Shown: one piece after another, positions 36,698 to 64,000 of the stretch
Position numbering within the stretch: position 1 is the first letter of the stretch
How the letters are laid out: every line of letters begins with the position of its first letter
Made by a program: the position numbers and the translations under genes
Origin: Physcia stellaris
Lineage: Eukaryota > Ascomycota > Lecanoromycetes > Caliciales > Physciaceae
DNA: 64,000 bases
Assembly (NCBI GenBank): GCA_018902385.1
Contig: JABSSW010000017.1
Span: forward strand, 682,001 to 746,000
Reading direction: 5' to 3'
The notes under the pieces: generated by a model
Seen by the model: only the letters and a program-made list of their open reading frames with translations
Databases searched by the model: none
Told to the model about the DNA's origin: nothing

Positions 36698-36831
36698 TGT
36701 GAGCATACACCTATTCCTGCTACTATTTGTTTCGAATACAGCCAGGGTATCTTAAATCATAAACACAACGCCATAATTAATGCCGAATGATCAATGCAAA
36801 CTCATGGCATGCCCTGCAATTCGGGAGACCG

Positions 36832-38265: not shown

Positions 38266-38512
38266 TACAGTTTGATTTCATACTTGGCGGAATTCTACGT
38301 TCGAATACTACTGAGGTATTGATGATTCCAGAATGGCAGACCATGAAGTAGCGTCCTTACGAGTAGCTGGGGGTGAATGGGAAACTCGAATTGGCATTTC
38401 CGCGCTAATGCCGGATGAGGAAACTGTCGCCGGTTTTCTCCACCATCTTTTGGCTACCGAAGGGGGAGATCTCAGTGCTATCCCAGCTTTTTCATCGATC
38501 CCAAGCACGTCA

Positions 38513-41370: not shown

Positions 41371-41533
41371 GCGTGAAGGGACCCTACCAAATGAGAATTG
41401 GATAGCATCAATCTTCATAATAAATCAGTCAAAAGACATGCTCAATGGGTATACCCAACTCCGAACACCAATGCCTCTCTCCATACACCTCCTCAAGCCC
41501 AACCCCTTGAATCACGCCCCATCAAGGACCGAC

Positions 41534-42238
41534 TCAATCCACCGCCTTCCCAGGTTTATTACCAGAGAAATTAAACTTAATCCTCTGCGGCCCCTTCTTC
41601 TCCCCCTCCTCCTCCTCCTCAACCCCCTTCTTCCTCTTCTTATCCCCCTTCCTCGCCACCCCTCCCCCTCCACCCCCAGTCGGCGTGCCCCCCTCCCCAA
41701 AACTCGTCGGCGTAACCCCCTGACTCTCCACCTGCGGACTACTCCCGGGGCTCACCTCCCTCGCAAACGCCGTCGAGCTCCTCGAGAACACCCGATCCTG
41801 CTCAACGACATGACTCTTCCTCCTACTCGCCGTGCCTGCGCTGGTATTCGCGGCGGCGCTGGAAGAGGGCAGCGACGCGCTGGTGGAGGAGGATTTGATG
41901 TAGTTGTCGAAGCCGCGGATGATGTTGCCCGCGGAGGTGTCCTCCAGGTAGGCGGTCTCGTGCCGGTAGATCTGGTCTTCGAGCGCGGCGAGGTTTTTGT
42001 CCAGCAGCGCTTTCTTTTGGAGCGTGTCCCGGAGGTCGCGTTTGAGTTTCTCGTAGTAGGGCACGCCGCGCGTGGAGTCGTTGGTGGGGGGATGTTTTCT
42101 GCCATTGTTGGGCGGTGCGGACGCGTGGGTTGGGTGATTGAATGGTTCGTGGCTCGTGGTGCAATTGGTCGATGTAGAACTAGGTGGCCAATCAGGGGCC
42201 GCCAAGAGCTTAGTCATTAATACGCACTTCAATGACAT
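41534..42238 (-). CDS. EAF6: NuA4 histone acetyltransferase subunit Eaf6
   Basis: Single exon, up to 234 aa from an ATG at 42236-42238. Eaf6 is a small subunit of NuA4 (Esa1) and NuA3 acetyltransferases. The core RGVPYYEKLKRDLRDTLQKK and DQIYRHETAYLEDT, then GNIIRGFDNYIKS, is the Eaf6 helical hairpin. A Ser/Gly/Pro-rich tail ends in a basic patch and IKFNFSGNKPG. The first ~55 codons are not Eaf6-like. A better start, ATG GCA GAA AAC at 42103-42105, lies one base out of frame, separated from the core by a run of six C; one more C would join them. So this is either a homopolymer indel (sequencing or real) or a start change. The gene's 5' side directly touches the AT-rich retroelement block. 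Confidence 0.85.
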   Translation of the reverse strand: MSLKCVLMTKLLAAPDWPPSSTSTNCTTSHEPFNHPTHASAPPNNGRKHPPTNDSTRGVPYYEKLKRDLRDTLQKKALLDKNLAALEDQIYRHETAYLEDTSAGNIIRGFDNYIKSSSTSASLPSSSAAANTSAGTASRRKSHVVEQDRVFSRSSTAFAREVSPGSSPQVESQGVTPTSFGEGGTPTGGGGGGVARKGDKKRKKGVEEEEEGEKKGPQRIKFNFSGNKPGKAVD

Positions 42239-42299
42239 TAGATGCTAGAAACGTGTAAATTAGCACTAAATAGAACATCATGCAATCAATGATTTACGA

Positions 42300-45200
42300 C
42301 TTCATGCAGTCTGACAGTTATGAGCTCGAATCACGTTTATTGTTGCATTCAATACGTGATTTAATTGATTATCGATATTTTCAACATTCGATTGTTTCGA
42401 CAAATTAACGAGAAATCAGAACATCGCGAGAACATTTCTGTGTTTACATTTTTTTACAACGAAAAAAACTCTTTTTACTTATTCGCTCGTTCAGCACGAT
42501 GACGAATACGAAGCGAAAACTCAAATTGAATTTTTTCAAAAATTGAAACGCGTGATTTTCGATCGTACGAATCAAAATCACAAAATATTCGATTTGAAAT
42601 TTCATCGATTCATTCAACGATACTAAATCAATAAAAAAATTCAATTTTTAAAATTCAATTTTGACACACAACAAGATGCGAATTTCAGCGAAAAACACGC
42701 TCGATACAAGATAACGACATCGAAATACAAAAAAATTTCAAAACTGAAATAAACAAAAAAATTTCATGACAAAAATAATCGATCACATTTACGATACAAC
42801 AACGATTACAAATTTCAATTTTATTCAAATCGTTGAAATTCATTCATGAATCGTTTTCGCGTTTTCAAAGACGTTTTGCACTCATCGATTCGATTAAAAA
42901 CTTGAAATTGAAACAAAAATACAATCGTTTGATCAAAAGTTCATTCAATCGTCAAAACATCGATGTCTGAATAAACGATTATTTGAAAATGTTGATTTTC
43001 GTTAAATAAACGAAAATTGCTGAAATCATCGATAACAAACAAATTTATCGTGATTTTTACACGCAATCGACAAAATCGCATTTATTTTCGTTAAAATACA
43101 ATTATTTCAATTAAACATTGTAACGAATCACGAAATTCAATTTTTCATTTTCATCGAAATCTTTCGACATCACATGCGCATGAAAAAAATTCAAAAAAAA
43201 AAAACGATATTCAATTCGACATTCGTTATTGACGAATGCAATTACACAAATCATCGAAATCATTTTGACATTTCGTCATTTCGAAATCAAAATCAATTTC
43301 GAAATTTTTGCATTTGCGAAAAAAACATTTTTACGACGATTGTTTTTATTTCAACGAGAAAATACGTTCAAATGATTTCAAATTGAAATCAGAAATCGTG
43401 ATTAAAATAAACGAAACAAAAAAAAATTCAAAAAAAAAAAAACAAATAAAACAGAACATCAAGCGAATTGACGAAAAACGTCAAAAGAAAAACGATAATA
43501 ACAAAAGCACAAAAGTCGAAATAGAATTTTTCGTCGTCATTCACGTCAATGTCATAAAGTCGTTTACAAGCGATTCGTTTTCGTCAAATTATTTTTTTTG
43601 TTCGTTGTGAATTATGAATTACGATTTCGACATTCACGTGATCAACAATACAATAAAACAACGTTTTCAAAAAAAACGAAATTGCACAAACGAATCGAAA
43701 ATTATGTTCGACATGAAATCATTTTTTATTTTGACATATGATCGAATGCGTATTAACGTCGATACGTTCAAAAAAAAAAATCAATGAAATTTTTAAACGT
43801 CAATTATGTATCAAATTTCATGATTAATATCATCGCGAAAAGCATTTTCGCAAACAAAAAATTGTATTTTGATACAATTGAAATGAACATTTGCACAAAA
43901 ACGATGTATCGATCGTTTTCGTGTCACGAATAAAAACACATTACGTTTTCGAAAATAATAAATTTGAAAAGATGAACATTTTCGCAATTATCGTGCGACA
44001 AAAATTTATTTTAAAATGACATCAATTTTTCGTTTATGCGAATAATGACGTCATACAACATTTACAAAAAACAATTGAAAAAATGAAATTTATCAACAAA
44101 AATAAAATGTCATTAATTAACAAATGCGAAAAATGTGCATTTTTCAAAATACATCGAATTGTATTCAAATTTTTTGTAAAATCAAAAATTTCGAACAAAT
44201 CGTTTTATCGTATTACATACGATTTCATCGATATGACAACGATTTTGAACAAACACAAATAAATATTACACGTAACATGTTTCGAAACAGATTTTCATGA
44301 TATACACGCACGAAAACAAAAAACAAATTACGAAAATATTTATTCGAATTATTCACATCATCGAAATCAAATATAACGACAAAATGATATTTGTACGTTT
44401 TGACGACGAACGTGCGTTAAACATTGTTTGAAATGATTATTGTGCATTCAAAAACATTACATATGAATTTTCGATCGTTGATATTTCAACACAAAACGAT
44501 CACAACGAACGATTAAATGACATATTGTTGATCAAATCACGAACAATGAAATTCGAAACAAATTTATTTGTTTATTTATGATCGTGAATCAATGAAATCG
44601 TTGATTACATAATGAATCGTATATTTTTCAAAAAACATGAATGAAAAACATCGTTCGAAATGATTATCGACAAAAAATCGAATTTTGTTCACATCGTTCA
44701 ATATGAAACAAAAACATATTTTTTGAATAAAAATATTTCGAAAAAAAAAAATGAAAATCAAAACACACATCGATTTTTTTGTAAAATATGACAACATCAA
44801 CATTTTTTTAATTTGAATTTTTAATCAACGAAAAATTATACGCACACGTGATGTCACATTTAACGAAAATTTACGTTATCGTTTTAACGAAATAAATTTA
44901 ATTCAATTCGTCAACGAGATTTTTTTGATTAACGATACGTTTGATATATCGCGAAACGATTTCGCGAAAATAGTGAACATCGAATCAAACAACGACGAAA
45001 ATGTATGAAAATTAGCATTTACAAAATCTATTATCGATCGCGATGCAAAAAAATCTCACAAACAAACGATTGAAAACGAATCTGAATCAAAATATTTATT
45101 TTCATTTGTTTCATTTTCGTCAAAAAATGAGAACACGTCAAATACGTTTGATTTTTCGTATTTTTTGTCATTTGTCGTTACAGAAAATTTCTCGTCATCT

Positions 45201-46721
45201 GTCGTTGCAAAAACAATAAAGAAATTATTTTCGTTTGCATCGTCGTTGAAAAAAAAAAATCGAAACATTGAACGAAAATAACGATTAACGAAATCAACAT
45301 TTAATTTGAAAAAATTATTCGCATTCGCAAATCAAATTCGTTTCGAAATTTCAATTATTACATTGTTTTGAAAAACGCGTTCGCAAAAAAAATGCATTCA
45401 TTTTACGAAACATTTATGATTTCATTAACGATAAAAATGAAATCGCATCGTGACAATTTTTTCGTCGAATTAAGATTTTATTATCAAATATTTAAACATA
45501 TTGAAATTGTCGATTTTTTACGAATTATTGACGTGAAAATCAAAACATTACAATCAAAACAAATTTGAAAAAAAATATTATAAAATCATGTCAAACAAAC
45601 AAAAAAAATTTTTATATTTATCACATGAATATTCAAATACAAATTCGACAATGAAAAATATTTGATAAAACACAAAATTAAATTGTGTGTTCGAAAAAAT
45701 TTTCAACAAATCGAACAAAACGTTTATGCAATTACATTAATTATTAAAATATTTCGAACATTAATGATCATAATTACAATTTTCGATTTGAATATTCGTC
45801 AATATAACGCAATCAATGCATTCGCAAATAACGATATCGACGAATTCATTTATTGCAAATCGTTTGACGATTGAAAAAAAACAAACAATGTGTTATTTTT
45901 TTTATTGAAAACATTATACGAATTGAAACAATTTTCAACATTATGATATCGACATTTTTCGATCATTTTTAACAATTTAAATTTGAAACAAATGTTCGAC
46001 ATCGAATGTTTATTTATGTGCGATTACATGATTTTATTTTTTTTCGTGAACGATATAACAATCATGTATTATTTTCAATATTTCAAACAAATCGACGTTT
46101 TCGAAAATTATTTTTTCGAAATTTACGAAATGAAAAACATGAACGAAATCGAATGATTTTTCAATATTCGCATTACACGCGATAAAAAACAACAAACAAC
46201 GTTATTTTGTCAAAACAATTATATCGATAAATTCATCAATAAATTCAATATCAATATGAACAAAAAAAGTCAAAATCATTTATAATCAATTATATTTCGA
46301 TGATAAAAAATGAAAATAATGTTATTTCACAAAAATTCACATGTATTAACAGAAAATCGATTCGATCAATTTCGTTGCAACAATCATTCGATCAGATGTG
46401 ATCGTTGTTGCATTATTATTATTTGAATATTTTACGAATTCATTTAAACATCATGCGAAACAAACGATTCGAACGTTAAAATATTTGACACACATCAAAT
46501 ATTACGTCATTGTTTACAAAAATCAAACAAATCATGAAATTATCATTTTTTTAAATTTTTCAAACGCGTCATTCGCAAACGATTTAAACACTCGTCAAAA
46601 TTCAAATGAATATTGTTTCATGTTTTTCGACGATTTCATCGATTGAAAAATCACAAAACAAAAAACAATCACAATTAATTTCATCGAAATCGAATTGTTG
46701 ATCATGTCAATGACGATCAAC
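42300..46721 (+). mobile_element. Copia-type LTR retrotransposon remnant
   Basis: A plus-strand Copia element whose domains follow the order expected for the family: gag zinc knuckle, protease, integrase, reverse transcriptase, RNase H. I could not define LTRs. The left edge is only approximate and lies between the border at 42,241 and about 43.2 kb. On the right the RNase H reading frame is cut off at about 46,720, where the inverted-repeat element begins, and I do not see it resume beyond 47,453. So the element is 3'-truncated, or its end was replaced. Fully dead. Confidence 0.75.
43290..46721 (+). pseudogene. Copia gag-pol remains
   Basis: Pieces in order: a zinc-knuckle-like segment at ~43,305-43,400 (CICEKKHFYDDCFYFNEKIR); protease near 43,610-43,650 (DFDIHVINNT, where DSGADxHV is expected); integrase at ~44,120-44,720 (CEKCAFFKIHRIV and a THNERxGG-like region); reverse transcriptase at ~45,660-46,150 (IRQYNAINAF, LYELKQF, FFFVNDI); and RNase H at ~46,440-46,700 (RTLKYLTH, NASFANDLNTRQNS). 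TGA codons at 45,944, 46,154 and 46,644 stand where Copia proteins have Trp. The catalytic YVDD is now VND, with the first Asp changed to Asn at 46,049-46,051. No functional protein can be made. Confidence 0.85.
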
Positions 46722-46840
46722 ATTGTTATAACGCAAAATCAAATTAAATGATTTGAATTTAGATCGAATATTTTTGCAAAACATTTGACAAGAATTCTGT
46801 CATCATTTCATATTAAATGAATGATGATCAGACAATTGAC
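46722..46840 (+). repeat. Left terminal inverted repeat, 119 bp
   Basis: Left arm of the element at 46,722-47,453. It begins ATTGTTATAACGCAAAATC, and its reverse complement matches 47,335-47,453 at about 87%. Confidence 0.75.
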
Positions 46841-47334
46841 TCGCAATTACTGTACATAAATTGACATTTTGACGTTCATAATTTTTAAATCAATCAATTC
46901 AAATTTTATTCATAACAATTGATAGCATCATTCAAACGATGATTTGTACGTAAACAAAACGACATCATTTTTTGTTTTTTAACGTATCAATTTTCGAACA
47001 GTTTTGCATTTTGTACGCAAATCATCTGTTCATCAATATTTTTCTCGCTGTCGCAATCGAAAATTTCGCTGTTTTCTCGATTTAGACGATCAATCAACTC
47101 ATTTCACTCAATTGAAAATTAAATTTTCAATCAAATCTTTTCAATTTTTTACAATTCTCAGCAGAAACGACTGATTTCTCATTCAAATATTCAAAGCATT
47201 TCGAATTTTCGTTGAAATTCGCATTGTCATCGCTTCAATGACGACGCATTTGAATGTCAATTCATATTTGAATTTTTGTTTGATTCGAACAATTTCAATT
47301 TAACGATTTCATTTGTCTTTTTCGCAATTACTGT

Positions 47335-47453
47335 ATCAGTTGTCTGATCATCATTCATTTAATATGAAATGACGACAAAATTCTTGTCAAAAATCATGTC
47401 AGAATATTTGATCTAAATTCATATCATTTAATTTGATTTTGTGTCATAACAAT
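47335..47453 (-). repeat. Right terminal inverted repeat, 119 bp
   Basis: Right arm of the element at 46,722-47,453, ending GTGTCATAACAAT. Fifteen mismatches to the left arm, clustered around 47,388-47,402. Confidence 0.75.
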
Positions 47454-47579
47454 CTGTCAATCAAAAAAAAAAAAAATCAATGTTTTCATTGAATTTCATG
47501 TTTTATCATCATGCGTAATCATATCATGCATCAATTTATTTTTTTTTCGTTTTTCGTTTGTCGTTGCGATCATCAAAAT

Positions 47580-48888
47580 TTTGCGAATGATTGAATTCGT
47601 ATTGTTCAATGAAATTCTGAAAATTTTGTAATTCGAAAATGAATCGTCATTCGTCATATTTCGATTCATAGTCGATTCATCTGACTAAATATTGAATTAC
47701 GAGAATTTTGTTGTACTTTTTAGTTCGCTTTTCGACTAGTTTTTCAATTTTATAAAACTTGTATTGATTCGTATCGTTTTCGATTTCAATGAAATCAAAA
47801 TAATGAAAACGCGAACGATTGTAAAAATCAATTTCGACAAATGTTGATTCGAGCTGTGCTATAAACATAACGAAATGAATTCGTCATGTTGATAACAATT
47901 TCAATTTGTACGCGAAACGTTCGATGCGTTCAAAAATTCGAAATGATTCGCAACGTTGTTGAAATAATTTCGAATTTGATTTGTTAAACAATTTGTAATT
48001 TTTGTTGAATTGTAAATAAATTTTTTTATTTTGTTTTAATCGAATAAAAATATGACGCGAATCATAATATATTTTGATTTTGACAATCGCAAAATTCGTG
48101 ATATTGACAGTTTTTCGCTAATATTTCATGCGTTGAATTGACAAGTTTTGTACGTTTGCTGTGTTAAATTCGATTAAATTTGATATCGCGTCTTTAACTT
48201 TGAATTCGTATATGATTTCATTGAATGATAAATCTGTAACGATGTTAAACGTGTTGTTTAACTGAATTTGAATTGCAAAAAAAATTAAAATGTAATCGAT
48301 GTTCGAAAATTCGATGACGAAATATTTGATAACAATTTCAACAATTTGATTGATTCGTTTTGACGAATCGTTCGTTTGCGAATGATATGTCATTGACATT
48401 AACAATTTCGTGTCTAATTTGATGAAAAACATCTGTCAAAAATTCGACATGAATTTGAAATCTCGATTTGAAATTATAATTTCAAACACATTTCAATCGA
48501 CTATTAACAATTTGTTCAATAATGCGTTGATTCATTTTTTCGTTTCATAAGTTTTTTTGTCGAAAATCAATGAGATTCGACGAAAATGTTTACATGTTGC
48601 GAACATAACAATGTTCATTTCGTCGAACATAATTAAAATGAAATCAATCGCAATAATGTGAAATAAACGCGAAACGAATGTGATAAACATGAATTTTTCA
48701 TACGATCGATGACGTTTGATTTGTGTTAACTGACAAATAAAACAATGTTCGATGTATTTTTTAATTTTTCGCGAAAATCGAAATATGTATAATGTATTGA
48801 AAATTTTGTTATAACATCGATGAATTTTTGAATGTTGATTTTGATCATGAATTAAACGAAATATTTCGCGTTTCATTGTAATCGATAT
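47580..48888 (-). pseudogene. Gypsy A integrase and chromodomain remains
   Basis: Read on the minus strand from 48,888: an HHCC zinc-binding integrase N-terminus (RLIHDQNQHSKIHRCYNK, then IEHCFICQ) at ~48,720-48,870, the catalytic core start (HIIAIDFI) near 48,655, and the core second half at ~48,118-48,432 (SMTYHSQTNDSSKRINQIVE, QIQLNNTFN). A chromodomain follows at ~47,580-47,770 (YKFYKIEKLVEKRTKKYNK, then a Trp-to-TGA change where R-W-x-x-Y is expected). A chromodomain after integrase marks it as a chromovirus, the clade that targets methylated-H3K9 chromatin through this domain. Multiple stops. Confidence 0.82.
48884..48888. other. 5' target-site duplication of Gypsy B (GATAT)
   Basis: GATAT directly precedes LTR 1, and AATAT (56,346-56,350) directly follows LTR 2. 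Five bases is the usual Ty3/Gypsy duplication length. The single difference is a G-to-A transition. Confidence 0.8.
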
Positions 48889-49085
48889 TGTAATGAAACG
48901 AAGTCGATCAAGCGAACGCTAAAACGTTGTGAATCTAACTGTCGCATCTCGTGCTTATATACTCGAAGTTTCACGAACTTCTTTCTGTTTCTTTAGCAAT
49001 TAATTCTATTATGTGTTTAGCATTTATCATAGCAATTCATACTATTATTCGCACATTTTAGTCACGCAATATTTACATTTTTACA
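48889..49085 (+). repeat. Gypsy B 5' LTR, 197 bp
   Basis: Starts TGTAATGAAACG, ends TTTTTACA (canonical TG...CA), 197 bp. It aligns to the 3' LTR without gaps, with 21 differences. It keeps many CpT/ApG sites that are TpT/ApA in the 3' copy, so it is the less mutated of the pair. It contains a GTGCTTATATACTCG stretch that may be the LTR promoter TATA region. Confidence 0.95.
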
Positions 49086-49122
49086 GTTTTAATTGTTTTA
49101 CATCAAGAACTGTTCGATTAAA

Positions 49123-50570
49123 AATGTTCAGTTCAACAAATGCGTTTCGTCGTCGCGAAATTCGTTCGCAAACTCGTGATCGTGCGATCGTATCGACTGC
49201 ATCACAATCAAACATCATTTTATCAAGCAATTTTTTTATTTTTTTTTTATCAATCGAGTTACTGAATTGCTCGATGATGTTCAGTTCGAAAATTTTGATA
49301 AAAACAATGATTTTGTCGATTTTGATAATGTCGACGTTTCAATTAAACACATTTCAATTTTCGAATCTTTGATTTCAAATGTTGATCAATTTTTCAATTC
49401 AGCATTTGTTACGCATTCTAGTCAGAATGAAACACAACGAAAAGATGATTTTGTTTCGTTGTCGTCAGATAGCGATATCGTTGTGTTTGTTGTTGTCGAT
49501 TCAAACGTGATTTTCAAGCAAATGAAAATGCGTATCAAAATGTTGAAAACTGAATCAAAATTCAATGATTTTAAGATATTTTTGATCAAAACAAAAACGA
49601 AACGTGATCGAAATCGTCGTCGTCGTCGCAACAACGATGATCAATATGAAAATTCGTTTTCGCATATCAAAAAACGAATCGCACGATCAAAAATTTCAAA
49701 CACGCAAAAATGTGAAAATTGAAACAATTTGAAAAATTGATTGCGTGATTGCGAAAAATATATCGCTTTCGATTTTGTTAATTTTCAAACAAAAAAAATG
49801 AAAACAAGTTGATCGACGTCGCTTTTGATGACGACAAAAAAAAATCAATGACGTAATTATGTTGATATTCAATTTGAAAAACAAACATGAAAACAATATA
49901 AAAATTATTTGTTGACGTTGTTTAGCAATTCGATGATTCGTGTCATGAACACGATTATTGTCATTGAAAATGTCAAGCAATTGTTTCGACAAAGCATTGT
50001 TGCGTTCAGTCAATATTTAATCAAATTGTGAAACAAATTGAAACGTCACGTCTCGAACGAAAAACGACAAAAAAATTGTTGATTAAAATTCATGTTTTCA
50101 TTCGCATCAAGTGCGTAAAAATGCGAAATCATAAAATCGATTTTTATTTCAAATTAATCGTCAATTTGTTGATTGCGAAACAATTGTTTGTCGACGATAA
50201 TACGTTAAATAAATCGTCGAACAATGTTACGAAAACAAAATAAAATAATGAAAATAATCAAAAAAATTACGAAAATGACAATAACGACGACAAAAATAAA
50301 AATAGAAAAATTTCGCGTAACAGATTTGCTGAATTTGACAACGTTCAAAAAAACAATCAAAATCAATTTTCGAAATCGCAGCAAAATCAACAAAATGAAA
50401 AAAAAAATGAAAATCGAAATCAAAATCACAATTTCGCATTTTCAGAATTCGAAAAACGCACATGTTTTTCATGTCATAAATCGAATCACATAGCAAGTGA
50501 TTTTGTGTGTGAAAATTGTGCGCAAATTCAAGAAAAACGCAATCAAAATCAAAATCAATCGTCGAAAAAA
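49123..50570 (+). pseudogene. Gypsy B gag remains
   Basis: An ATG at 49,123 starts a Ser/Arg-rich leader (MFSSTNAFRRREIRSQTRDR). After frame breaks, a basic helical stretch (KTKTKRDRNRRRRRNNDDQY, ~49,590-49,650) precedes a capsid-like region at ~49,700-50,000 with LRDCEKYIAFDFVNF, which resembles the WxRDCExAFxLxPxxF motif of fungal Gypsy gags. A degenerate CCHC zinc knuckle (CFSCHKSNHIASDFVC) is at ~50,462-50,510. The first ~600 bp keep more CpT/ApG than the rest of the element. Confidence 0.75.
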
Positions 50571-53500
50571 GAACGAGTTTGATGTTTGTCGCTAAAACAT
50601 TGAAAATAAATTTAAAACGAAATAAATTTCGTGTTTTGATAATCACGTTATCAATCAAAACATTTGTTACGCAAACAGACAATACAACAATTATTTGCTT
50701 GATTGATTTTGATGTCGAAACGAATTTTATATCACAAATTCTTGTCAAACAAATGCAATTGTCTGAATTAAAAAAAAATTGTTAAACAACATGTAAAAAC
50801 TGTTGACGATCGTGTGATTCAAATGTATGAACATTATAAAAACGTGCATATCATGACACGAGATAATGAAAAACATGTAAAAAAACAAAATGTTGATTTT
50901 TGAACGATTGACATGCGTGAATACGACATGATTTTTGAATATTCATGATTGAATGTTGTCGATTTTGACATTCGTTGACATGATCGTCGTTGACTATATC
51001 GTGATGATAATTATGAAAAATTCAAGCAAATTTCAGTCAGTCTCTGCTTTGCGAAAAAATTCGTTGATTTAATTATGATTGTCATTGCGAATCGCGATCG
51101 TGTTTATGTCGCAATGTCATATCAAATGCTTTTTTTAGCACAAAACTATCAATATCGAAAGCGAAATGTTGTTCGTTGTGATGCGTTACAAGTGAATCGC
51201 AACGATCACATTTTTGATGCTATCAAAAAAGTAATCGAAATATTTTTCAAAACGCTGTCGAACAGTTTGAATACGCATGATCAAATCGAGCATGCTATTG
51301 ATTTACAATCAAACAAAAAATCGCGTTTTGAATTTATATACAATATGTCACATGACGAGTTTATTGTTATACGCGTGATTATTTCGAAAACGCGTTGACG
51401 AAAAAATGAATTCGTTTTTTCAACGCATTTGCGAAAATATCTGTGTTGTTTGTCAAGAAATCAAATAACAATTTGCGTTTATGTGTGAATTATCGAAAAT
51501 TCAATGAAATCACGATCAAGAACAATTATTCATTGTCGTTGTTATTTGAAACGTTAAAACGTTTCGCGAATGTTAAACATTTTATCAAAATAAACATTCG
51601 AAATACGTATTATAAAATTCGTATTCGTCAAAAAAATGAATGAAAAATTGTTTTTCGTATTCGTTATGAACAATACGAATATCAAATTATGTTTTTCGAT
51701 TTTGTTAACGTTTTTGCTATTTTTCAATTTTATGTTAATGAAACATTAAAATTATACATTGACGTTTTTTGCGTGATGTATTTGAATGATGTGTTGATTT
51801 ATTTTGAAAATGAACAACAATATTGAAAACATGTTCGTTTGATGTTTAAAACGTTGTTACGTTATCGCTTATATGTCAAATTGAAAAATGCGAATTCAAA
51901 AAAAAAAAAAAATCAATTTTTTAAATTTCGTTGTTGAACGCAATGATATTCAAATGAAACGTTCGCGTATAAACGCAATCGTCGATTGATTTAAATTCGA
52001 AAATGCGAAAAATATCATGATTTTTTTAGATTTTGCTGAATTTTATAAACGTTTTGTTAAGAAATTTTCGCAAATCGTAACATCATTTACGAATTTGACG
52101 CGTGATACGAAAAAAAAAAATCGTTTTTCATTTGTTATGACAAAAAAAATTAAAATTGCGTTCAACGAATTCAAAATTAAATTCACGATTGTTTTTATTT
52201 TTACGCATTATGATTGAAAAACGAAATTACGCATGAAAATTGATGTTTTTGATCGCGAAACAAATAATGTGTTCAATCAAAAAAACAAAAACGATTAATG
52301 ACATTTCATTGCGTTTTTCAATTACAAATTCAAAAAAACAAAAATTAATTGAAATACGCATAACAAAAAATTGTATGCGATAATGTTTGATTTCAAAAAT
52401 TGAAAACATTATTTGCAAAATAACAAACATTTCATTCGCGTTATTTTTGATTACAACAATTTTCGATATTTTATGACAATCAAAAAATTAAATGCGAAAC
52501 AAATTTGTTGAATTGAAAAATTAATTGCGTTTGATTTTAATATAAAATATCGCAAAAACAAATTGAATTTTGCGAACGCGTCGTCGAAAAATTTGATTTT
52601 ATGAAATCGAACAATAACGACAAAAACAACGATAAATTTTTATTTTGTTTATTTTGCGAAACAAATTTCGCAATCAAAATTATCAATTTGATTTGCAAAA
52701 CGATCAACGTGTGTTTGTTTCAATCAAATTTGCAACATCGACAACGCGATTGCGTAACATTGTTACGACAAATATTCGAAATATTGTTTCGAATGAGAAA
52801 GTTTTCGATAAAAATGTTTGCAAAATTCTAAACATTGTCGCATTTCGATTTTTAATTCATCAAATTATGAAATCGAAAAATTTTATTTAAAATTGCGAAA
52901 ATCAATGATTGCGTGATTATTTCAAATTACAACAAAAAAACGTTTTTGTTGTTGAGAAATAATGACGTCAAAAATACGCAAACAAGCAAAACGAATTTTC
53001 GAAATGAAATGTTGAAAAAAATGAATTGTTTCGTCGTGATTTCGCAATCTATGTGTTTGAAAATTTCGTTACAAAACAAAAAAAATTTTTCGTATGAATC
53101 ATGACGATTCAAATGTTAAACATTTTGCGCAAACAAAAATCGAAAATGTTGTGCGACGCAAATATTTTTGATTTGACATAATTAAAAAATAACAAATTAT
53201 GTACGCATTTGTTCAAATTGTTAACGAATGCAAATTCATCGACATAAATTTTATGACGATATGATAACAATTTCATCAAATGAAAAACAATCATTTGATA
53301 CAGTTATTATGAACTTCATCACAAATATGTTTTTTGCTAGAAATTTTTATACGAAAAAAATTAGCGATTCAATATTAATATTGATAAACAAATTGACGAA
53401 ATACGCAACGTACATAACAATCACAAAAACGTTAAACGCAATAAATTTTGCGAATTTGTTATGACGAGAATTCGTATGTCGTCATAAACGAAATGATGCG

Positions 53501-54370
53501 TAACATTATTTCGAATCGAAAATTTTTTCACAAACAATTTTGATTTATTTTGTGCTGAAATTTGAAAGCGAAACGTAAATTTAATATTGTTTTTCATTCA
53601 CAAACAAATGAACAAACAAAAAAACAAAATGTTGTGCTCGAACATTATTTGCGTGTGTATTGCAATTTCAAACAGAATAATTGATCAAAATTGTTATTCA
53701 TGACACAATTTGTTTACAATAATAGCAAACATTCAAACATTGATCAAATTTTTCATGAATTTTTGTTTGAATACGTTGCGACTTTAAACAACGATTTTGT
53801 GAACAATTTTCAAAAAAAAAAACAACATTTGCAACAAACAAAGCAAAAACGTTGCGAAACAATCGAGCGCATTTAATGAAATTGTGAAAAACGATTTTCG
53901 AACAACAAATCAAATATTATAATGAAAATCATATAATGAAAAATTTTGAATTTGAAAAAAAATGTTGTTGCGTGAAATCAATATACGCACATTGCGTTTC
54001 AAAAAGAAAATTGATCATAAACAGTTGAATTTTTTTGAAATTGTCAAGAAAATAAATACGCAAATTTACGAGCTTGATTTGTTTAAACAATATAAATTCA
54101 TACATTTTGTGTTTCATGTTTTTTTATTCGAATTTTGATATAGTCGTGACGACGCAAATTCAAAATCGCAATCAATATTAATAAAAAACGAAAAAAAATG
54201 AAAGATATCGCAAATGTTAAACAAGCGCATTAGAAAAAATCAATTTGAATATTTTATTGCATGAATAAATTTATCGTCATATGAGAATTCGTGAAAGTCA
54301 ATGAAACATCTCGAAAATGCGAAAAACGCAATTGTCAAATTCGAAAATGCGCGCGAATTACGCAAATCTG
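50516..54370 (+). pseudogene. Gypsy B pol remains with chromodomain
   Basis: Protease at ~50,695-50,770 (CLIDFDVETNFISQILVKQM, where LIDSGAxxNFIS is expected). RT at ~51,440-51,890 (LRLCVNYRKFNEITIKNNYS, then YLNDVLIYF in place of YLDDVLIYS). RNase H and connection at ~52,020-52,480 (FLDFAEFYKRFVKKF). Integrase core at ~53,230-53,880 (LINKLTKYATYI, QFVYNNSKHSNIDQ). Chromodomain at ~54,225-54,360 (FEYFIA, then MKHLENAKNAIVKFENAR). TGA stops at 51,641 and 51,824 fall on expected Trp positions. The first RT Asp of YxDD is Asn (51,785-51,787). Confidence 0.88.
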
Positions 54371-54544
54371 AAAAAGTTGCGAAACGTCGAAAAACAAACA
54401 AATTCAAAACGAAATCGAGCGAGAAATTTTCAACAAAAAAGCAAACACGTCAATTTTTAAAATTGAAAAAACGTGAACGATTCAAAAAGCAAAAATAACA
54501 ATAATTGCGACGCAAAAACACAGACAATAAAATGATATTGTGAA

Positions 54545-55860
54545 TTGTTCTTGATTACATGCGCAATTTGCATACAACAAACAAACAACAAAACAACACG
54601 TCACAACAAAAAGCAAAACTCAACATTCAACGAAAAAAACACAACAACAAACAAAATCGTACGATCATTAAATCGAAAAAAACACGAAAATGTAAATCAA
54701 CGCGTCAATAAATTCATCAATCAAAATTCACATCACAACAATCAAATCGATTTCGATTGCGTCATGTTAATTGTTGTCACGTTTAATGAAATTTTGTTTA
54801 TTATTGATTACGCGATTTTGTTGAATCGAAATCGACGCAAAAACAAACGCGATAACAAACGAATTTGTTTGCGATACAAACGCAACGAAATCAACAAACG
54901 AAACAAACGCAAACGAGACGAAAACGAAAAAAAAAACGACGCGAAAGTCGAGAAACGAAACAGAAAAAATTCGAATTTTTTTTCGAACAAGAACAAAAGC
55001 AAAAAAAAAAAAAAACGACAAACAAAAAAATTTTTTTTTCAACGAATTTTGACGTGACAATCAACGCAACTTTGCGAAAAAAATCTTGATAAAAAACAAC
55101 GAATTTTTTTTTATGTCATTTTGTTTGTTTCATGTTAATCACGTTATGCATCAAAAATCGTATGCTATTATTTTTTCAATGTTGAAAAATCAATTTCAAA
55201 TTGTCGTTATTTTTGACAACGAAAATGCGAACGTTGTTTTGCAACTTGTAAAAAACATTGTTTTTTTCACAATAATGAGAATTTTTGTTGCAAAGTTCGC
55301 ATTTGTTTCGCTTGCTGTCGTCAAAAAAAACGCAAACGTGCTTTGAATCAAAACGAAACTTTCGAACGCAACGTTGACATCACATATGAATTGATTTTGT
55401 TACGCGTCAAATTGATATGAAACAACTGTGTGTGTTTATTTATTGAATTTGATTACAATGCGATCGCGAACATCGCGATTCGAATACATGTTTATCGTAT
55501 TGATTGTATTCAACAATTCGAACGTAAAAAGTTTATCAATTTAATACGCGTCAACAACGTCATCGCTATTTACAATACATTTACAACAAAAACAGCAAAT
55601 TGCGTGTTTTTGCGAAACGTAACAAGCAACGACGAAAAAAAAATGAAATTATGATTTGTTGCATCGTTAACACACGCATTGCATTGTCGACGTTCGAAAA
55701 TCAATTTCGTCGTTATTGAAACATCATTGCGACAACATCATCATTTGCAAAAGCGATGTGATAATTGTACAAACAACAATATATCATGTTGACATCATTG
55801 TCGCAATAATTGTTGTTATCGCAAAAACAAAAAAATCAAATGAAATATTTATTATGCTAT
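54545..55860 (+). pseudogene. Possible extra open frame of Gypsy B, cysteine cluster at its end
   Basis: Between the chromodomain and the 3' LTR lie ~1.8 kb that pol does not need. Broken plus-strand frames are seen at 54,545-55,057 (very Lys/Arg/Asn-rich), 55,086-55,346 and 55,430-55,850. The last, read through one TGA at 55,652, ends in a Cys-rich segment at ~55,757-55,822 (CDNCTNNNISC, a TGA, then HHCRNNCC). That Cys spacing recalls zinc-cluster motifs. The composition is heavily distorted by mutation, so coding status is unproven. No function is assigned. Confidence 0.4.
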
Positions 55861-56148
55861 GAAATAAAAATGTTAAAAAAAAAAATTCAAAAAATGAATT
55901 GAAAAATTGAAATAAACATTCATTAATACACGACGCGATTCATTTCGACTCGATTTCACAACACGAACGCGATATTTGAAATTGCATTACATTGTTATTG
56001 TTATTTCTATTTATTGAATTACAATGTTTCAAAATTACACGTCGAAAGCACAAAGTTATTTACAAAACAACATTGTTGCGATACATTTTTGATATGTTAT
56101 AAAAACATTGATAGCTGACGCGAAAAATCGATCATTCAAAAAAACAAT

Positions 56149-56345
56149 TGTAATGAGACGAAATCGATCAAACGAACGTTAAAACGTTGCGAATTTAATT
56201 GTCGCATTTCGTGCTTATATATTCGAAATTTCACGAATTTTTTTTTGTTTTTTTAACAATTAATTTTATTATGTGTTTAACATTTATCATAACAATTAAT
56301 ATTATTATTCGCACATTTTAATCACGCAATATTTACATTTTTACA
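56149..56345 (+). repeat. Gypsy B 3' LTR, 197 bp
   Basis: Starts TGTAATGAGACG, ends TTTTTACA. Same length as the 5' LTR. Of the 21 differences, in 18 this copy has TpT or ApA where the 5' copy has CpT or ApG, in one the reverse holds, and two are of other kinds (C/T at 56,190 and A/C at 56,298). Confidence 0.95.
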
Positions 56346-59300
56346 AATATACACGATCGACGCGAATCAATGTCAACGTGATATATAATATTATTCGTAT
56401 TTATCGCGAAATTGATTTTTGTTTTGAATTTTTTTGATATAAATTTTGTATCGTCATTTTTTTGTTCATTGACGTTTCGTTTCGTTACGTTGTTTTCGAA
56501 CGACGATGAAATTTGAAAATTTCGAATCGACAAATTTTTTTTTTTCGTGCATTCGAATCGTCAACGATTTTAATATCGTGATCATGTTTCGTCACGTTTT
56601 TTCGTTCTGATATTCGTTTTTGATTTTTTTTTCTTTAGATTTTTCGACATGACAATAAAAATGTTTTGAAAAACGTAACAGTCGAAATTATTCGAAAAAT
56701 CGATTATTTCGTCATGATATGTGTTCAAATCAAATTTATTTTTTGAATTTTTGTCGATTTGTTCATTTTCAAACGTTAATTTTGATAACGCATTCGAAAC
56801 AACATGATTTTTTTTTGATTTATATTTCATTTTCAATTTAAATTGTGACAAATAAACTGAAACACGAACAAAACGAAAATTGAATTTATCGATGTTGTTC
56901 GAATTCATCGTGATTTGTTTAACGATAAAAATATTGACGACATGATTCGTGAACACAACAATGATATTTTTGATTGTTTTTATCATATGTCGAATTTTTT
57001 TGACAATTCATATTAAATCACACATTTCGAATTCGATGAATCAATATTTGATTTCGATTTCGTTCAACATTCGATTTAAAAATAGAATAAATTCGATGTC
57101 GTTACGTTTGAATTTGTCTGAATTATTGTTTGTTTTGAAATGATAAATCATCGCGTCGAATTCGCGTCGTTTAAACGCGTCGATGTCGATGTACAATTGT
57201 TGATCGAAATTGAAATGTATCAAAAATGAAATTTTGTTAAAAATTTTTTGCAATAATCGATATGATTTTAATTTCTCAATTGAAAAATTGTTCATTACGA
57301 TTTTTTGCGAATAAATTTTGCGAATGATGTTTTTGTTGAAAAATGATTGACGTAAAAATAAAATTTTGCGACGTTGTAACGCGTTCGTTTTTTGAACATA
57401 AAACGCGACGAATTTTCGTAATCATTTTGTTAAATTTAAATAAATTTTCAAATTTTTCAAAATATAAAAAAAATTCAATTTGATTATTGTTTTCAATTTA
57501 TCGATTGCGATAATGAAATCAAAAACGTCAATTTTTTGATCAAGAAATGCGATCGTAAAATAGTCGAAAAATGATTTTTCGACGACAGATTAATTTCATA
57601 AATATTCAATCGTTCGAATATCGAATGTAAATGAATCATATGTTTTTCAAAAATATTGAAAAAAACGATAATGTCGTTTACGTAAACACGAACAAATTCG
57701 CGAAAATTTCGAAAAATGAAATCGATTCGTCGCTGTACGTATAATAATGAATTTTTGAAATTCATCACGACAACGTTAAATTGTTTTTGTTTTTTATGTG
57801 AAACGACGATAAATTTATGTTTGTTTGCAAACTTTATCAATCATTGATAAAAAAAATTCGCAACGTCAAAAACGAATATGAATTTGCATTCGACGACAAT
57901 TGAAATAATGTTTGATTAAAAAAACATAAAATAAAAATCGATTAAAATGATTTTGTTTAAATCACGTATATTCACAACGACGCGTTTTTTGCGTTTTGAT
58001 TCATTTGATTCAAACACGATTCGTCAAATTGCGAATATTGAATAATCGTGCGACGTAAATTGAATAATGTATTTCATACGTTTTTGTGCATGTAATTTGT
58101 CAAAAATTTCGTTTACAAATTTTTTGTTTGCGAAATCAAACGAATATATTTTTGTTGTTTCGATTTTGACGTCAAATTTCAATTCGATTGACATTCATTC
58201 ATTTTTCGAAATTTTCATCGTAAATTCATTGTCGTTTCACAATTTTGAATAGTTCAACGCAACGTTTGCAAACTTAATTCGAGCGTTAACGTCATCGTAA
58301 ACAATAATTTCAGCAAACAACATTTTTTTCGCATTAATATTAAAATTTACAGCAATAAAATCGTTAAAATTGCGTGCAAAATTGAACGCAAAATCGATAT
58401 TTGCATCGACGAAATTAATCGCGATCGCATCGTGCAAATTTTCATAATTAATCGTCATAATCGCGTCAATTGTTATGATCGAAACATCAAATTTCAACGT
58501 TTGTTTGAATCAATTTTAGAAACAAATTTATAAACATTAGCAATTAAATGAACGTATTTCGAGTTAACTAAATAGCATTTTTTTCGTATTTTTGTACGAA
58601 CTCAAGACGCGTATTTTTGAAAATGTAAACATTTTCAACGTTGATGTTGTGAATTTGAACGATTTTTGTATGTCATCGATAATATGAAAAATACGTTTTC
58701 ATTTTGATTTAATCGTTCAATTCGTGAAAACGTGAACATAAAATCGCGTTCAGTAAATAAATTATTCTTTTCACGTAATTTGAAAAGAATTGTAAAAATT
58801 GATTTAATTAAAATTTTAATAATTTCGTTGACACGAACAACGCGTTTGACTTGTGATTCAACATTAATGACATTTAATTTAATTCGTATATTTTTGCAAC
58901 TTTTTATAGTGACGACTTGTTTGTTTACATTTATATTCATTTGTTTGAATTCAATATATCATTGTCTAAAAGAATTTTTGTTTTCAATTTTTTCATTATG
59001 TAAATCTGTCGCGTAAATGTGACGATCGCATCGTCGTCATCAATCGAAATTTCAAAAACACGAAAAATTAATGAAATATGATCAATTGTTGTGACGACGA
59101 CGTTTTCGATATCGCGAATTTTGAAAAATTTCATGATTTGTCGCGCATGTGTTTTGTAATCAAATATTTTTTGCATCAGAAATTTACGATCGATTAAAAA
59201 TGCATCGCATTCGATATCGACGCACATATCAATAAAAAATTGTTTTATGTTTGTTTTCATCGTGACGTAACGTCACGAACGAAATTCGAAATTGAATCGT

Positions 59301-60964
59301 GTATTTGTTTTGACATTTGATTGTATGATAAATATTTGATAATTATGAGCATTTTTCGTCGATGATGTGTCAAATTTAATCGAAATTGTTTGACACGAAC
59401 GCAAATGTCGATGAAATTTGTTATTAAAATAAAATTTTGATTGATAACGTTTGCATGCATAAATTTTTGTTTGTTTGATTGAAATATTCACAAAATATTC
59501 GAATAATTCATGAATCACATAATTTTCATTAAATTTTTGAATTTCGAAATATTTTTCGTTATGATATTCATCATTTATCATAAGTATTTTTGACGCGTTC
59601 TCAATATTCATGCTGTGATCATTTTGATAATTTTTTTCATCGTTTGAATAATTGTTTTTTGTTTTTTTTTTCGCAAAATACGTTCGTCGATATGATGTTT
59701 CATTTTGATTAAACGTTTCATTTTGATTAAAATAAATATTTTGCTTAAACGAAAACGAAAATGAATTTGAAAAATCAACAAAATATTGATTAAAACGTAA
59801 AAATTGCGAATATTGAAATCGCGAATCGAACGTGTTTCGATTTTTTTGAGTTTCGTCTTGTTGCGTTTGTTGAAATCGATATTGTTGATTTGCGTATGAA
59901 CGTTTTTGCATATTTTGTGTCGATTGTTGTCGATTTGAATAATCTGATTGATACGAACGTTATTGTTGTTGAAAAACGTAAACGTTATTTTGTTTGTCAA
60001 ATTGATATGAAATTGAATATTGCGTTTGTCGTGATTGCGAAAAAAATTCATTGAAATTTTCGTAATCATTACGTTCATTGATGAAAAAAAAAATATTATA
60101 CGAATCGAATGAAACTGAAATTTGAAAACGATAAATGAATTGAAAACGACGATCGTTTTCGAATGAATGATAAAAACGATATCGATTTTCAATGTTTCAT
60201 TATATTTTTTTATCATCAAGTTGTTGAAAAAATTCATTCATGATAATTTTTTTTGTCGATTTAATTAAGTTTCGTCGAAATTCTAATTTCAACTCATTGT
60301 AAATAAAATAAAGTTGTGAATAAATTGACATCATAATCGATTTAACATTTCTGATTATTATTTCAACGAAATCGAATGATTTTTATGTTTGCGAACATTT
60401 TTCATAATGTATTTTTTTTGATAAATCGTCAACGTCGTGAACGACGATTTTTTATAACGTTTTAACAACAAACGTTTTCATTTTTTACGTTTTTTTTTAA
60501 TTTGATCAATTTTTTTTGATCGTCATTGACGATTTCAATATATTATCGTAATGCATAATCACGCATGCAATTATAAAAATTTGTTCGAATCACATCAACA
60601 TCTTTGAGCAATGTCATATTTTTAATTTTTTCAATATAGAAATGAACATTTCGAAAATATGTATTTTTGCTCGAACGCTTTCGATCGAATTGTCGATAAT
60701 AACGTTTTTTTTTTCGTATCACGAATCGAAAAATTTTGTTTTTGAACATTTCATTTGACGTCATCGTCATTGTCAAAAAATTCGATTGAATTTGATGATT
60801 CGACAAAATTTTGAAATTTTGTTTGAAATCGTTTCGAACATTGTTACGAACATGTTTGACAGATAAATCTGACAAATAGATAATTGATATGATATGTAAT
60901 CGAACAACGAATTATGCTTTAATTTTACGTTGAGATTAACGTGATTTGAAACTTGACGTCGCAC
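56346..60964 (-). pseudogene. Gypsy A gag to RNase H remains
   Basis: Minus strand, 5' to 3': gag pieces at ~60,964-60,540; a gag C-terminal part at ~59,911-59,390 with a C2H2-like finger (CKRYQSKFYFNNKFHRHLRS); protease at ~59,220-58,940 (FLIDRKFLMQKI, LLDNDIL); an RT upstream linker at ~58,240-58,500; RT palm at ~57,840-57,600 (QFNVVVMNFKNSLLYVQRRI, then YVNDIIVFF); RNase H at ~57,295-56,760 (LYIDIDAFK, SVYLSQFKL, VVSNALSKL); and a spacer to 56,346 where Gypsy B is inserted. The first Asp of YVDD is Asn (57,676-57,678), the second is intact. Not functional. Confidence 0.85.
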
Positions 60965-61229
60965 ATTGTTTGCAATTTCAACATTTTGTATTTATTTGTT
61001 TTTGCAGACTTATTGTTTTCGTTTAATTAATCAATAATACGTTTATTCAAACACGATTCATGATATTACAATAAATTTTCAATTTTATCGCTCGTCGTGA
61101 TACGCGAACGTTCAAAAATAAAACTTCAAATCGATCAAATTTTTTGACGAAACAAACGACGAAAAATTCTGTTGATCAAACAAACGATCAAAAGTTTTTT
61201 TGACGAAACATTTGACGAAAATCGTGAAA

Positions 61230-64000
61230 TAACAAATTGAATTTTCACGCAAACGACGATATTTTCGACGATAAAAAAAAAACTGATTCGATTAATTTTT
61301 TTCTTTTATCATTTTTCAACTTTTCATTTCCAATTATGATTCGAAATCATCACGAAACAACTTTTTTCGAATTTTTTACTTCGATGAAACAACGTTTCAA
61401 AACGCTACGTTTCAATGTAAATCGTATGTTACAAAAATCAATGACAATTTTTTCGACGAAAATTTCGTCGAACAATTCAAACGTCGTCGATTTGTTTCAA
61501 CGATCGAATTTCATAAAAATGAAAAATAACGAAATTATTCATTTTTTGAACATCGTCATCATCGATCAATTGAAATGATGAATCAATCAAAAAATCATCG
61601 ATTTTTTGAAAAAAATTTGATCGATTACGCATTGATCGTGACAACTATTTGAACGTCTTGATTCAATATCAGAATTTGTACAATATCGTCAACGTCGATC
61701 GTGACGAATTGATCAATACAAACGTTGAATTCGATAAAATTCGCAAAAAAATGAATACATTGAAAACTAATTACGAACAAACGCGTGATCGATTTTTAAT
61801 CAAACAACACGATTACATTTTTTTCAAGAAAAATCATAACGTTTTGTTAATCACGACTCGCGATCGTACACGAAATTCTGATGACGAAAATGAAAACAAC
61901 GACGACGAAATCAACGTAATTAATTTTTTCAATAAAACAAACGACGTTCAAAAATTCATTCAAATTTTCTTAAATTCATCGACGAAGTGAAATCTATTTG
62001 ACGTGTTTGAAAAACAAAAATGCATGATAAAATGACGATCAATGTTGATCATTACGACACGAACATGATCGCAATCATTATTGTGATTAATTGAATTGAA
62101 AATGATGTCGATAATCACATACAATCGATACGTAATATCGACATGAATCATTTCAAAAATTGACATATGATGTTGAAATTTTTGAATTTCATTTTCGAAA
62201 ATTTTGATTTCAAACGCAATATGCGTATTCAATTCCGAACATTGATAATGAATATTCAGAATTTTCAATTTTTTTATTTCATTTTTTTCGTTTTAACAAT
62301 TCAATCGATTATAACGAAATCATCAAAATCGAAAAATTGATAAACAAAATTTTTTGAAATTTGAAAAAGACGATGAATGTATATTCACGTAAATTCATCA
62401 CGTTCGATGAAATTCGAATCATTTTGCAACAAATTTACAATCGACAATCGAATTTTCGAAAAAAAAAAATCGCGACACGTCAACAACGATTTGAATTGTT
62501 TTAATTCAAATCAATTTTTGTCGTTTCGATTTCGATGTTCTTTACGAAATCTGTTATTTCGATTTTTTCGTGAAATTTGTCGTTCATTTTCATTTCAACG
62601 CTGAAATCAAAATTCATGATTCGATAACAAACAAATTAATCGTCACGAACAAATGTTTCACATGCGATAAAATCGATCACGTAAAAAAAAATGTTCGAAC
62701 GTTCACAAACATCAAAAACGTCATTGACACAAAATGCAAATGTTTTACATGAAATTTAATCAACGAATCGAACGAATTTGATTCGAAAAATTGATAATTC
62801 ACATCAAAAACGCGATTGATGAATGTTTAAAAATTTTTTTATTATCAACGACGAATTGTTTGATTTTTTTTGTCAAACGATTTTTAATCATCAATTGTAC
62901 GTTGTCATTCAACGATAATAAACATAAATTAGAAACTTTAATAAACATTGATGCAATTGATTATGCTTTCATTGATAAAGAAATTGCGCAATTTGTATGC
63001 AACATGCTGAACATGAATTTCGTATTTTTATTAAAATCGAAATTCATTATCGAATTCGACGATCGTCAATTTTTTCAATAATTCACGTCATTTATTTTAA
63101 GTTAACAATTGATTTGCATTTCGAATTGACAATTTTTTTGTTAATCATCGATTTGAACAATCATTCGATAATTTTAGAAAAATCGTGAATGAACAAACAT
63201 GAAATTATTTTGAATATAATTTACGATAAATTGATTTTCAAATCGTTCAAATGTAATTATTATGACAATATATTCATCAAAACAATTGCAAATTCGACGT
63301 TTGAAAATTTTGATTCAAATCGTCGATGAAACGTATTTAATTGACGTCGCGATATTTTTTTATCGAAAACAAATAACGCGAAACATATTGTTGCAATAAA
63401 ATCTCGATATACGATTTTATTTTGTTCAAAATCAAATTTAGTTTTTCAACGTTTTATGTACAGAACGAATCAAACGTATTCGATTCAAAATGTTTCGATT
63501 GTTTTATTTATTCGAAAGTCGATCAAAATGACGAATCGTTCGTCGCAAAATCAAATCATTCAAAAATTGATATCACAACGATTACGAAAACGACATTCGT
63601 CAAAAAAAAAATTTGAAAAAACAACGCAACAAGCGTTGAAAAATCAAAAACAACAATTCGAAATTTTTTCATTTTCGAAATTGAATTCAAACGATTCAAT
63701 GAATATCGCGATAATTGATGCAATTTTTTTGTTTATTTGTTGATTTCAAAAATCGAAAACAAAAAATGCAATGTTTTTTCATTACAATTAATCAAATCGA
63801 TTTCGCATTCAAAACATTGCGAACAAATTTTGAATCGTTGAAAATTGTTGTCATGATCAAAGAAATTTTGAAACATGAACAAATCAAATCGATTTTTGAA
63901 CGTATAATGAAAAAAATATTCAAATATTTCAAACATTTATCAAAAATATTCGATTTTCAAAAAACAATTGAATTGTCATCGTATCGATTTTACGATCACA
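61230..64000 (+). pseudogene. Gypsy C gag and protease remains, runs off the window
   Basis: A third Gypsy element on the plus strand. The gag N-terminal part at ~61,330-61,990 ends in an acidic linker (DDENENNDDEINVINFF). A capsid region follows at ~62,020-62,210 (KMTINVDHYDTN, HIQSIRNIDMNHF), then a zinc knuckle at ~62,655-62,720 (CFTCDKIDHVKKNV) and protease at ~62,880-63,190 (ETLINIDAIDYAFIDKEIAQ, where VDTGA is expected). A protease-RT linker runs to the end of the window, finishing in a block like the LPxHRPYDH motif that precedes Gypsy RT. RT and the 3' half lie outside. Stops and frame breaks throughout. The leader at ~61,140-61,215 has short repeated GACGAAACA-type units. The 5' LTR is not identified. 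Confidence 0.78.

What the first reader, a model, noticed from the sequence alone, without database searches (positions are those of the whole stretch)
42300..64000. RIP-like decay with CpT/CpC (CpY) specificity instead of CpA
Seen directly: in the retroelement block C is almost always followed by A or G, and G is almost always preceded by T or C; CpT, CpC, ApG and GpG are nearly absent. Two counted 60-bp lines (45,361 and 58,381) have no such dinucleotide at all. Known: classical RIP (Neurospora, Zymoseptoria and others) converts CpA to TpA, and CpG-methylation decay removes CpG. Both of those dinucleotides are kept here. Inference: the genome has, or had, a repeat-directed C-to-T mutator whose target is C followed by a pyrimidine. 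That would imply a deaminase or methyltransferase-like enzyme with an unusual 3'-neighbour preference.
Basis: partly seen in the sequence, partly recalled or inferred. Interest (0 to 1): 0.92.

Follow-up and report, generated by a model that had tools for sequence, protein, structure and literature searches.

The report
Repeat mutation targeting CpC and CpT
Transposons of a lichen fungus have been wrecked by C-to-T mutation that hits C before C or T and leaves C before A or G nearly untouched, roughly the reverse of the usual fungal pattern, so the standard test for such mutation misses it.

Summary
The window lies in a genome that matches the lichen fungus Physcia stellaris. From about 42,203 to 64,000, CpC, GpG, CpT and ApG nearly vanish (390 seen, 2,934 expected from shuffles) while CpA and CpG stay. 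Comparing decayed transposon copies with intact or less decayed copies in the same genome gives the direction. A Copia copy at 44,679-46,722, set against an intact copy, has C-to-T at CpC 185/189, CpT 236/253, CpA 39/275, CpG 17/230. All 16 polarised pairs counted show CpC > CpT >> CpA, CpG. One pair has 240 CpY changes beside 9 other differences in 1,579 sites: a burst, not slow decay. The classical RIP index is positive in 0 of 94 AT-rich kilobases. The genome has one DIM-2-like and two RID/DmtA-class methyltransferase genes; which of them acts, if any, is inferred. Related proteins on other, mostly unnamed contigs show the same loss of Pro and Gly, so the habit may be wider. The paper passages I saw report CpT beside CpA, never CpC first with CpA spared. 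Best reading: a RIP-like system with a switched 3'-neighbour preference.

The parts
42203..64000 (.). AT-rich block depleted of CpC, GpG, CpT and ApG; continues to the contig end outside the window
44679..46722 (+). Decayed copy of a Copia-type element of which three copies of ordinary composition exist (L026, L027, L028)
   Evidence: (match C17:726,679-728,722): CpC 185/189, CpT 236/253, CpA 39/275, CpG 17/230 changed
59200..60300 (-). Segment of a decayed repeat family with 41 matches in the genome, itself included; the related stretch in L015 carries an integrase zinc-binding domain further on, so probably an LTR element of the Ty3 kind
48887..49085 (+). 199-nt direct repeat, 89% identical to 56,147-56,345
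56147..56345 (+). Second copy of the 199-nt direct repeat
1..42202 (.). Flank of ordinary composition (GC 49%), the internal control

Best explanation
The genome has, or recently had, a repeat-directed hypermutation system that works like RIP but requires a pyrimidine 3' of the target cytosine. Shown: transposon copies lose C to T at CpC first, then CpT, on both strands, while CpA and CpG mostly stay; the change is fast compared with other divergence; the genic DNA sampled is spared. Inferred: the mutation comes from a cytosine-methyltransferase-type RIP enzyme, most likely one of the two RID/DmtA-class proteins (L006 with the EQT triad, or L001 with EET; about 0.6), less likely the DIM-2-like protein (L005), whose target recognition region favours CpY; and it acts around the sexual cycle as in other fungi.
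For: 16 of 16 polarised pairs counted: CpC 0.90-0.99, CpT 0.53-0.94, CpA 0.02-0.15, CpG 0.00-0.09 changed (pairs within a family are not independent). L036 to L032: 240 CpY changes, 4 CpA, 5 reverse, 0 transversions in 1,579 sites. 4 of 4 pairs of unmutated copies show no such bias. The 3' base decides: CCC centre 36/36, but the second C of CCA 6/64 and of CCG 6/45. L036 is lopsided between strands: GG 29 against CC 102. Stops in reverse transcriptase matches: TGA 401, TAG 3, TAA 101 (transcribed), as CpC change turns TGG into TGA. RID/DmtA-class and DIM-2-like genes are present.
Against: Elements with 95-98% identical unmutated copies exist (L026-L028; L038/L039), above the recalled Neurospora identity threshold, so the system may be inactive now, escapable or slow. 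CpA change is low but not nil (up to 48/321 in L062; 94 variable CpA columns in 16 copies). The 101 TAA stops are not explained by CpY change. Dependence on mating, on duplication and on any of the genes is untested.
Confidence: 0.78

Rival explanations
1. Slow deamination of 5-methylcytosine in silenced repeats: a DIM-2-type enzyme keeps CpC and CpT methylated and mutation builds up over many generations, with no RIP burst.
For: A DIM-2-like gene with methylase and DUF7893 domains is present. Decay varies in depth between copies (GC 0.24-0.32 in 8 copies).
Against: CpC is 96% changed while other differences are 9 in 1,579 sites (L036 to L032); strand asymmetry in L036; intact copies 2-5% apart show no CpY excess.
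Confidence: 0.12
2. The lesion lies on guanine: G after a purine is modified (O6-alkylguanine type) in repeats and read as A, giving the same spectrum as the alkylation signature SBS11 (C>T at CpC and CpT).
For: SBS11 has C>T at CpC and CpT and is reproduced in vitro by O6-methylguanine on the template (PMC12556801, passages). CpY on one strand is RpG on the other, so sequence cannot tell them apart.
Against: No known enzyme does this to repeats; chemical damage would not stop at transposon edges or saturate; RIP-type genes are present.
Confidence: 0.04
3. A DNA cytidine deaminase of another class, directed to repeats.
For: PF00383 has 8 matches in the genome; they were not analysed further.
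Against: 5'-neighbour preferences (AID, APOBEC, UV at TC/CC; recalled) are not met: TCA 4/54 and TCG 2/63 changed against ACC 50/53. Deaminase-domain proteins are common housekeeping genes (the family rings in 12 of 14 control genomes).
Confidence: 0.04
4. The elements never had CpC or CpT (composition), or the sequence is an assembly artefact.
For: None found.
Against: Copies of the same families with ordinary composition exist in the same genome (L025, L026-L028), and proteins from other assemblies show the same Pro/Gly loss.
Confidence: 0.01

Closest known systems
RIP of Neurospora, Leptosphaeria and other Pezizomycotina (mainly CpA)
   Same: C-to-T/G-to-A transitions saturating repeats, genes spared, sharp edges, RID-class gene present
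   Different: CpA and CpG spared, CpC and CpT hit; TpA/ApT falls instead of rising; stops are TGA, not TAG
RIP with a CpT component (Botrytis, Sclerotinia, Magnaporthe; PMC4352252; also Colletotrichum truncatum, Anisogramma)
   Same: CpT is a target; RID-class gene
   Different: There CpT goes with CpA, in the same genome or with positive classical indices; CpC is not named as a target in the passages seen; here CpC comes first and CpA is spared
CpG-directed decay (Tuber, Microbotryum, rusts; PMC4352252)
   Same: Repeat-associated C-to-T change with a 3'-neighbour rule
   Different: Here CpG is among the best kept dinucleotides
Alkylation signature SBS11 (PMC12556801)
   Same: Same context: C to T at CpC and CpT
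   Different: Drug damage across a genome, not directed to repeats, no saturation

Membership tests
RIP | C:G to T:A transitions dominate in repeated DNA | tested here: met
   16 of 16 pairs, e.g. L026 to window copy: 479 C>T/G>A, 27 reverse, 43 transversions
RIP | Repeats hit, genic DNA spared | tested here: met
   94 AT-rich and 168 other kilobases separate (sample not random); families of dozens of copies
RIP | Duplications above a length and identity threshold are mutated | tested here: inconclusive
   Three Copia copies 95-98% alike and an RVT_1 pair 95% alike are unmutated
RIP | CpA preference (usual, not universal) and positive classical indices | tested here: not met
   CpA 248/2,566 against CpC 1,874/1,946; CRI above 0 in 0 of 94 AT-rich kilobases
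RIP | Happens before meiosis in the sexual cycle and depends on RID or DIM-2 | not testable with these tools
   Needs crosses and gene deletions
RID/Masc1/DmtA methyltransferase class (L006, L001) | PCQ in motif IV, EQT or EET instead of ENV in motif VI | tested here: met
   L006 PPCQFFSDAH and EQT; L001 PPCQSFSPAQ and EET; criterion from PMC6709928, passages
RID/Masc1/DmtA methyltransferase class (L006, L001) | Mutates or methylates repeats | not testable with these tools
   No expression or deletion data
DIM-2 class (L005) | Methylase domain with ENV and a BAH domain | tested here: inconclusive
   Methylase and DUF7893 above cut-off, BAH 18.7 of the 30.8 bits required; ENV seen in the frame; no tree made
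Alkylation signature SBS11 | C>T at CpC and CpT | tested here: met
   Context only; restriction to repeats speaks against membership

The most novel reading that the evidence does not exclude
The repeat-directed lesion is not a modified cytosine but a modified guanine after a purine (O6-alkylguanine type): a genome defence with new chemistry that yields the same spectrum as SBS11.
Probability: 0.04. Interest if true: 0.97.

Novelty: new variant of a known kind. Interest (0 to 1): 0.83.

Why it matters
To my knowledge (recalled) how RIP enzymes choose the neighbour of their target base is not known. A natural system with the choice switched from CpA to CpC/CpT, in a genome where the search found only three candidate methyltransferase genes, makes that testable by gene swaps. 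It also shows a blind spot: the index built on CpA scores this block lower than the genic left part (CRI -0.93 against -0.61), so surveys that rely on it would report such fungi as free of RIP. Because CpY change makes TGA the main new stop, decayed transposons keep long frames that can be taken for proteins without Pro, Gly and Trp.

Tried and rejected
Rejected with evidence: compositional origin (intact copies exist); CpG-methylation decay and CpA RIP as the main process (both contexts mostly kept); 5'-neighbour mutators such as AID/APOBEC or UV (TCA and TCG kept; their preferences are recalled).

Led nowhere: a viral-contig scan with the decayed reverse transcriptase alignment (274 pattern matches, none a relative); rDNA as a second polarised test (the machine did not complete); a first methyltransferase tree (of 40 rows, 16 lost to my motif filter and 6 to a length filter) and a crashed script, replaced with 32 of 38 rows (3 without a PCQ match, 2 short fragments and the long-branched Pseudocyphellaria B row dropped).

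Literature: 10 searches. I opened 15 papers and saw an outline with abstract for one (PMC12543289) and otherwise only passages found by term; two gave no passage (PMC7493409, PMC10512270). Listed papers that hold the word CpC but that I did not open include PMC3017866, PMC4522978, PMC4014442, PMC8959702, PMC5496416 and PMC3688495. PMC8016269 (Dim2 loss lowers mutation in repeats) I saw only in a listing. Clutterbuck 2011 is recalled only, and not seen. That CpC-first, CpA-sparing RIP is not in print rests on those searches and passages alone.
Full report
What the window is. The window is G000:C17:682,001-746,000 of a genome of 43.97 Mb in 147 contigs. The best hit of its methyltransferase L006 (99% identity) is named as Physcia stellaris and lies on a contig of 1,184,035 bases, the length of C5 here. 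The naming rests on that one match; the published assembly is given as 46.57 Mb in 184 scaffolds (PMC7513301, passages), so the copy held here is not identical in size. P. stellaris is a lichen-forming fungus (Physciaceae, Caliciales), sequenced from an ascospore culture with Nanopore and Illumina. The passages I saw do not describe the mutation pattern.

Observation. Up to 42,202 composition is ordinary. From there on CpC, GpG, CpT and ApG almost vanish, CpA is kept, and CpG is 2.6-4.2 times expectation in each kilobase from 43,001, because the remaining C stands before A or G. Of 262 one-kilobase windows in the window and 20 fetched loci, 94 have GC under 36%; in these a median 6.6% (range 0-33%) of C on both strands stands before a pyrimidine, against 50.3% (34-62%) in the other 168; 64 of the 94 have no CC or GG at all. 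The 20 loci are not a random sample: five start at base 1 of a contig, three run on from the window to the contig end, and three were chosen for the methyltransferase genes.

Direction of change. Three Copia families have intact or less decayed copies. (a) L026 (C8) has ordinary composition and no stop in its reverse transcriptase match. Against it the copy in the window (44,679-46,722) is changed at CpC 185/189, CpT 236/253, CpA 39/275 and CpG 17/230. Seven further copies agree; the pool of eight is CpC 1,874/1,946, CpT 1,872/2,383, CpA 248/2,566, CpG 130/2,199. These are 8 of the 40 other matches, some of which are pieces of one copy. (b) L025 (C69), with an open reverse transcriptase frame of 571 aa, against three of its four other matches: CpC 0.94-0.98, CpT 0.84-0.92, CpA 0.06-0.11, CpG 0.06-0.08. 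(c) L036 (C20, GC 45%, itself partly decayed) against five of 39 other matches: CpC 0.94-0.98, CpT 0.60-0.93, CpA 0.02-0.07, CpG 0.00-0.03. Fisher tests of CpY against CpR in four pairs give odds ratios of 113-758.

Controls. In 4 pairs of unmutated copies (three among L026-L028, and L038/L039) 0.01-0.05 is changed at every dinucleotide, without a marked excess of C to T over T to C. In the window's other family (59,200-60,300) I aligned 16 copies, the window's and 15 of the 40 other matches. No column of invariant C stands before a pyrimidine; 104 stand before G and 68 before A, both strands counted. But 94 CpA and 49 CpG columns do vary, beside 114 CpT and 3 CpC, and per copy 3-17% of CpA sites differ from the least decayed copy; so CpA change is not nil.

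Anatomy of the preference. The 3' base decides: in L025 to L034 the centre of CCC is changed 36/36, the second C of CCA 6/64 and of CCG 6/45. The 5' base matters little, G being slightly unfavourable in most sets. The first C of CCC is hit less often (25/34, 16/20, 18/20, 16/18 in the four sets) than the first C of CCA, CCG or CCT (0.97-1.00), as expected if the middle C falls first and leaves the slower CpT (inference). In L036 GG is 29 against CC 102, and AG 84 against CT 104: one strand has been worked on, CpC before CpT. That is one copy only; strand bias within a copy is a recalled feature of Neurospora RIP.

Burst, not drift. L036 to L032: 240 CpY changes, 4 CpA, 0 CpG, 5 reverse changes and 0 transversions in 1,579 aligned sites. 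Slow decay is hard to fit to that. Against present activity stand the unmutated copies that are 95-98% alike.

Protein-level trace. TGG to TGA is what CpC change on the opposite strand gives; CpA change there would give TAG. The TAA share is not explained by CpY change.

Other species. A decayed 184-aa reverse transcriptase fragment without Pro, Gly or Trp found 51 proteins on other contigs. Two (P0258, P0269) have ordinary composition. In the other 49, positions that are Pro or Gly in those two keep it in 2/235 and 6/428 cases, while His, Gln and Arg are kept in 194/299, 128/304 and 300/598. The search favours such proteins, since the query lacked Pro and Gly and since frames broken by CpA RIP would rarely be in the library; so this shows that the pattern occurs elsewhere, not how common it is. 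None of the 51 bears a name. Only one, P0241, was checked against this genome and matches at best at 69%, so it is not a copy from here; the others were not checked. P0259 and P0278 also show Arg to Cys/Trp five times each, which suggests that CpG is hit as well in their source.

Candidate enzymes. PF00145 has four matches, in three genes: L005 (methylase, DUF7893 and a sub-threshold BAH; ENV), L006 (P0001, 932 aa; EQT) and L001 (512 aa as spliced by eye; EET). Of the 114 proteins found with L006 (only the 8,000 best candidates were scored) those that bear a name are, by genus, lichen fungi (recalled); most bear none. L001 finds Aspergillus and Blastomyces DmtA. In a tree of 32 catalytic domains L006 lies among lichen homologues and L001 on the DmtA side, with weak deep forks (82/86). 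PMC6709928 (passages) gives EQT/EET and a short TRD as marks of the RID/Masc1 group. None of this shows which gene acts. Deaminase-domain matches (8) were not analysed further.

Literature. All from passages. PMC4352252 reports CpA, CpT and CpG signatures; in its table CpT occurs only in genomes that also show CpA, and it suggests a RID motif linked to CpT. PMC2621366 finds strong CpT change in Neurospora Tad1 and in some Stagonospora repeats, beside CpA; PMC5555474 notes raised CpT change in N. crassa rDNA. PMC10998396 reports CpA and CpT in Anisogramma. PMC6180176 scores several Colletotrichum truncatum families as CpT-biased, but with strongly positive classical indices. PMC7882544 states that CpT to TpT dominated in its RIP-capable controls. 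So CpT as a target is known. PMC12543289 concludes that RIP-like defences share a CpA preference. Among lichens, Endocarpon pusillum has classical indices (PMC3897900) and Cladonia rangiformis strong RIP without a stated context in the passages seen (PMC12542154). In none of these did I see CpC as the first target with CpA spared.

Verdict. I file this as a RIP-like system with a new target preference, not as proven RIP, because dependence on the sexual cycle and on RID could not be tested and the classical indices are not met.

Noticed in passing
L026, L027, L028 (C8, C42, C7): Three Copia copies 95-98% alike, of ordinary composition and without stops in the reverse transcriptase match, have escaped the mutation although decayed relatives are common.
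   Followed up: partly
L038, L039 (C5:1,165,500-1,168,000; C12:59,300-61,800): A pair of RVT_1 elements 95% alike with no CpY bias between them, another apparent escape.
   Followed up: partly
L036 (C20:571,000-572,600): A half-decayed copy lopsided between strands (GG 29, CC 102), a possible snapshot of one round of mutation.
   Followed up: partly
P0259, P0278 (proteins from other contigs): Pro and Gly lost and His/Gln largely kept, but also five Arg to Cys/Trp each: perhaps a source where CpG is hit too.
   Followed up: no
L011 (C1:1-10,000): Contig C1 begins with TTAGGG-type telomere repeats (CCCTAA on this strand).
   Followed up: no
L008 and L009 (C17:754,000-762,000): Within the AT-rich block beyond the window a stretch of about 8 kb is less decayed (GC 0.30-0.35, CpT partly kept).
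   Followed up: no
window 46,722-47,453: 118-nt inverted repeat, arms 88% complementary and 496 nt apart, beginning where the Copia match ends.
   Followed up: no
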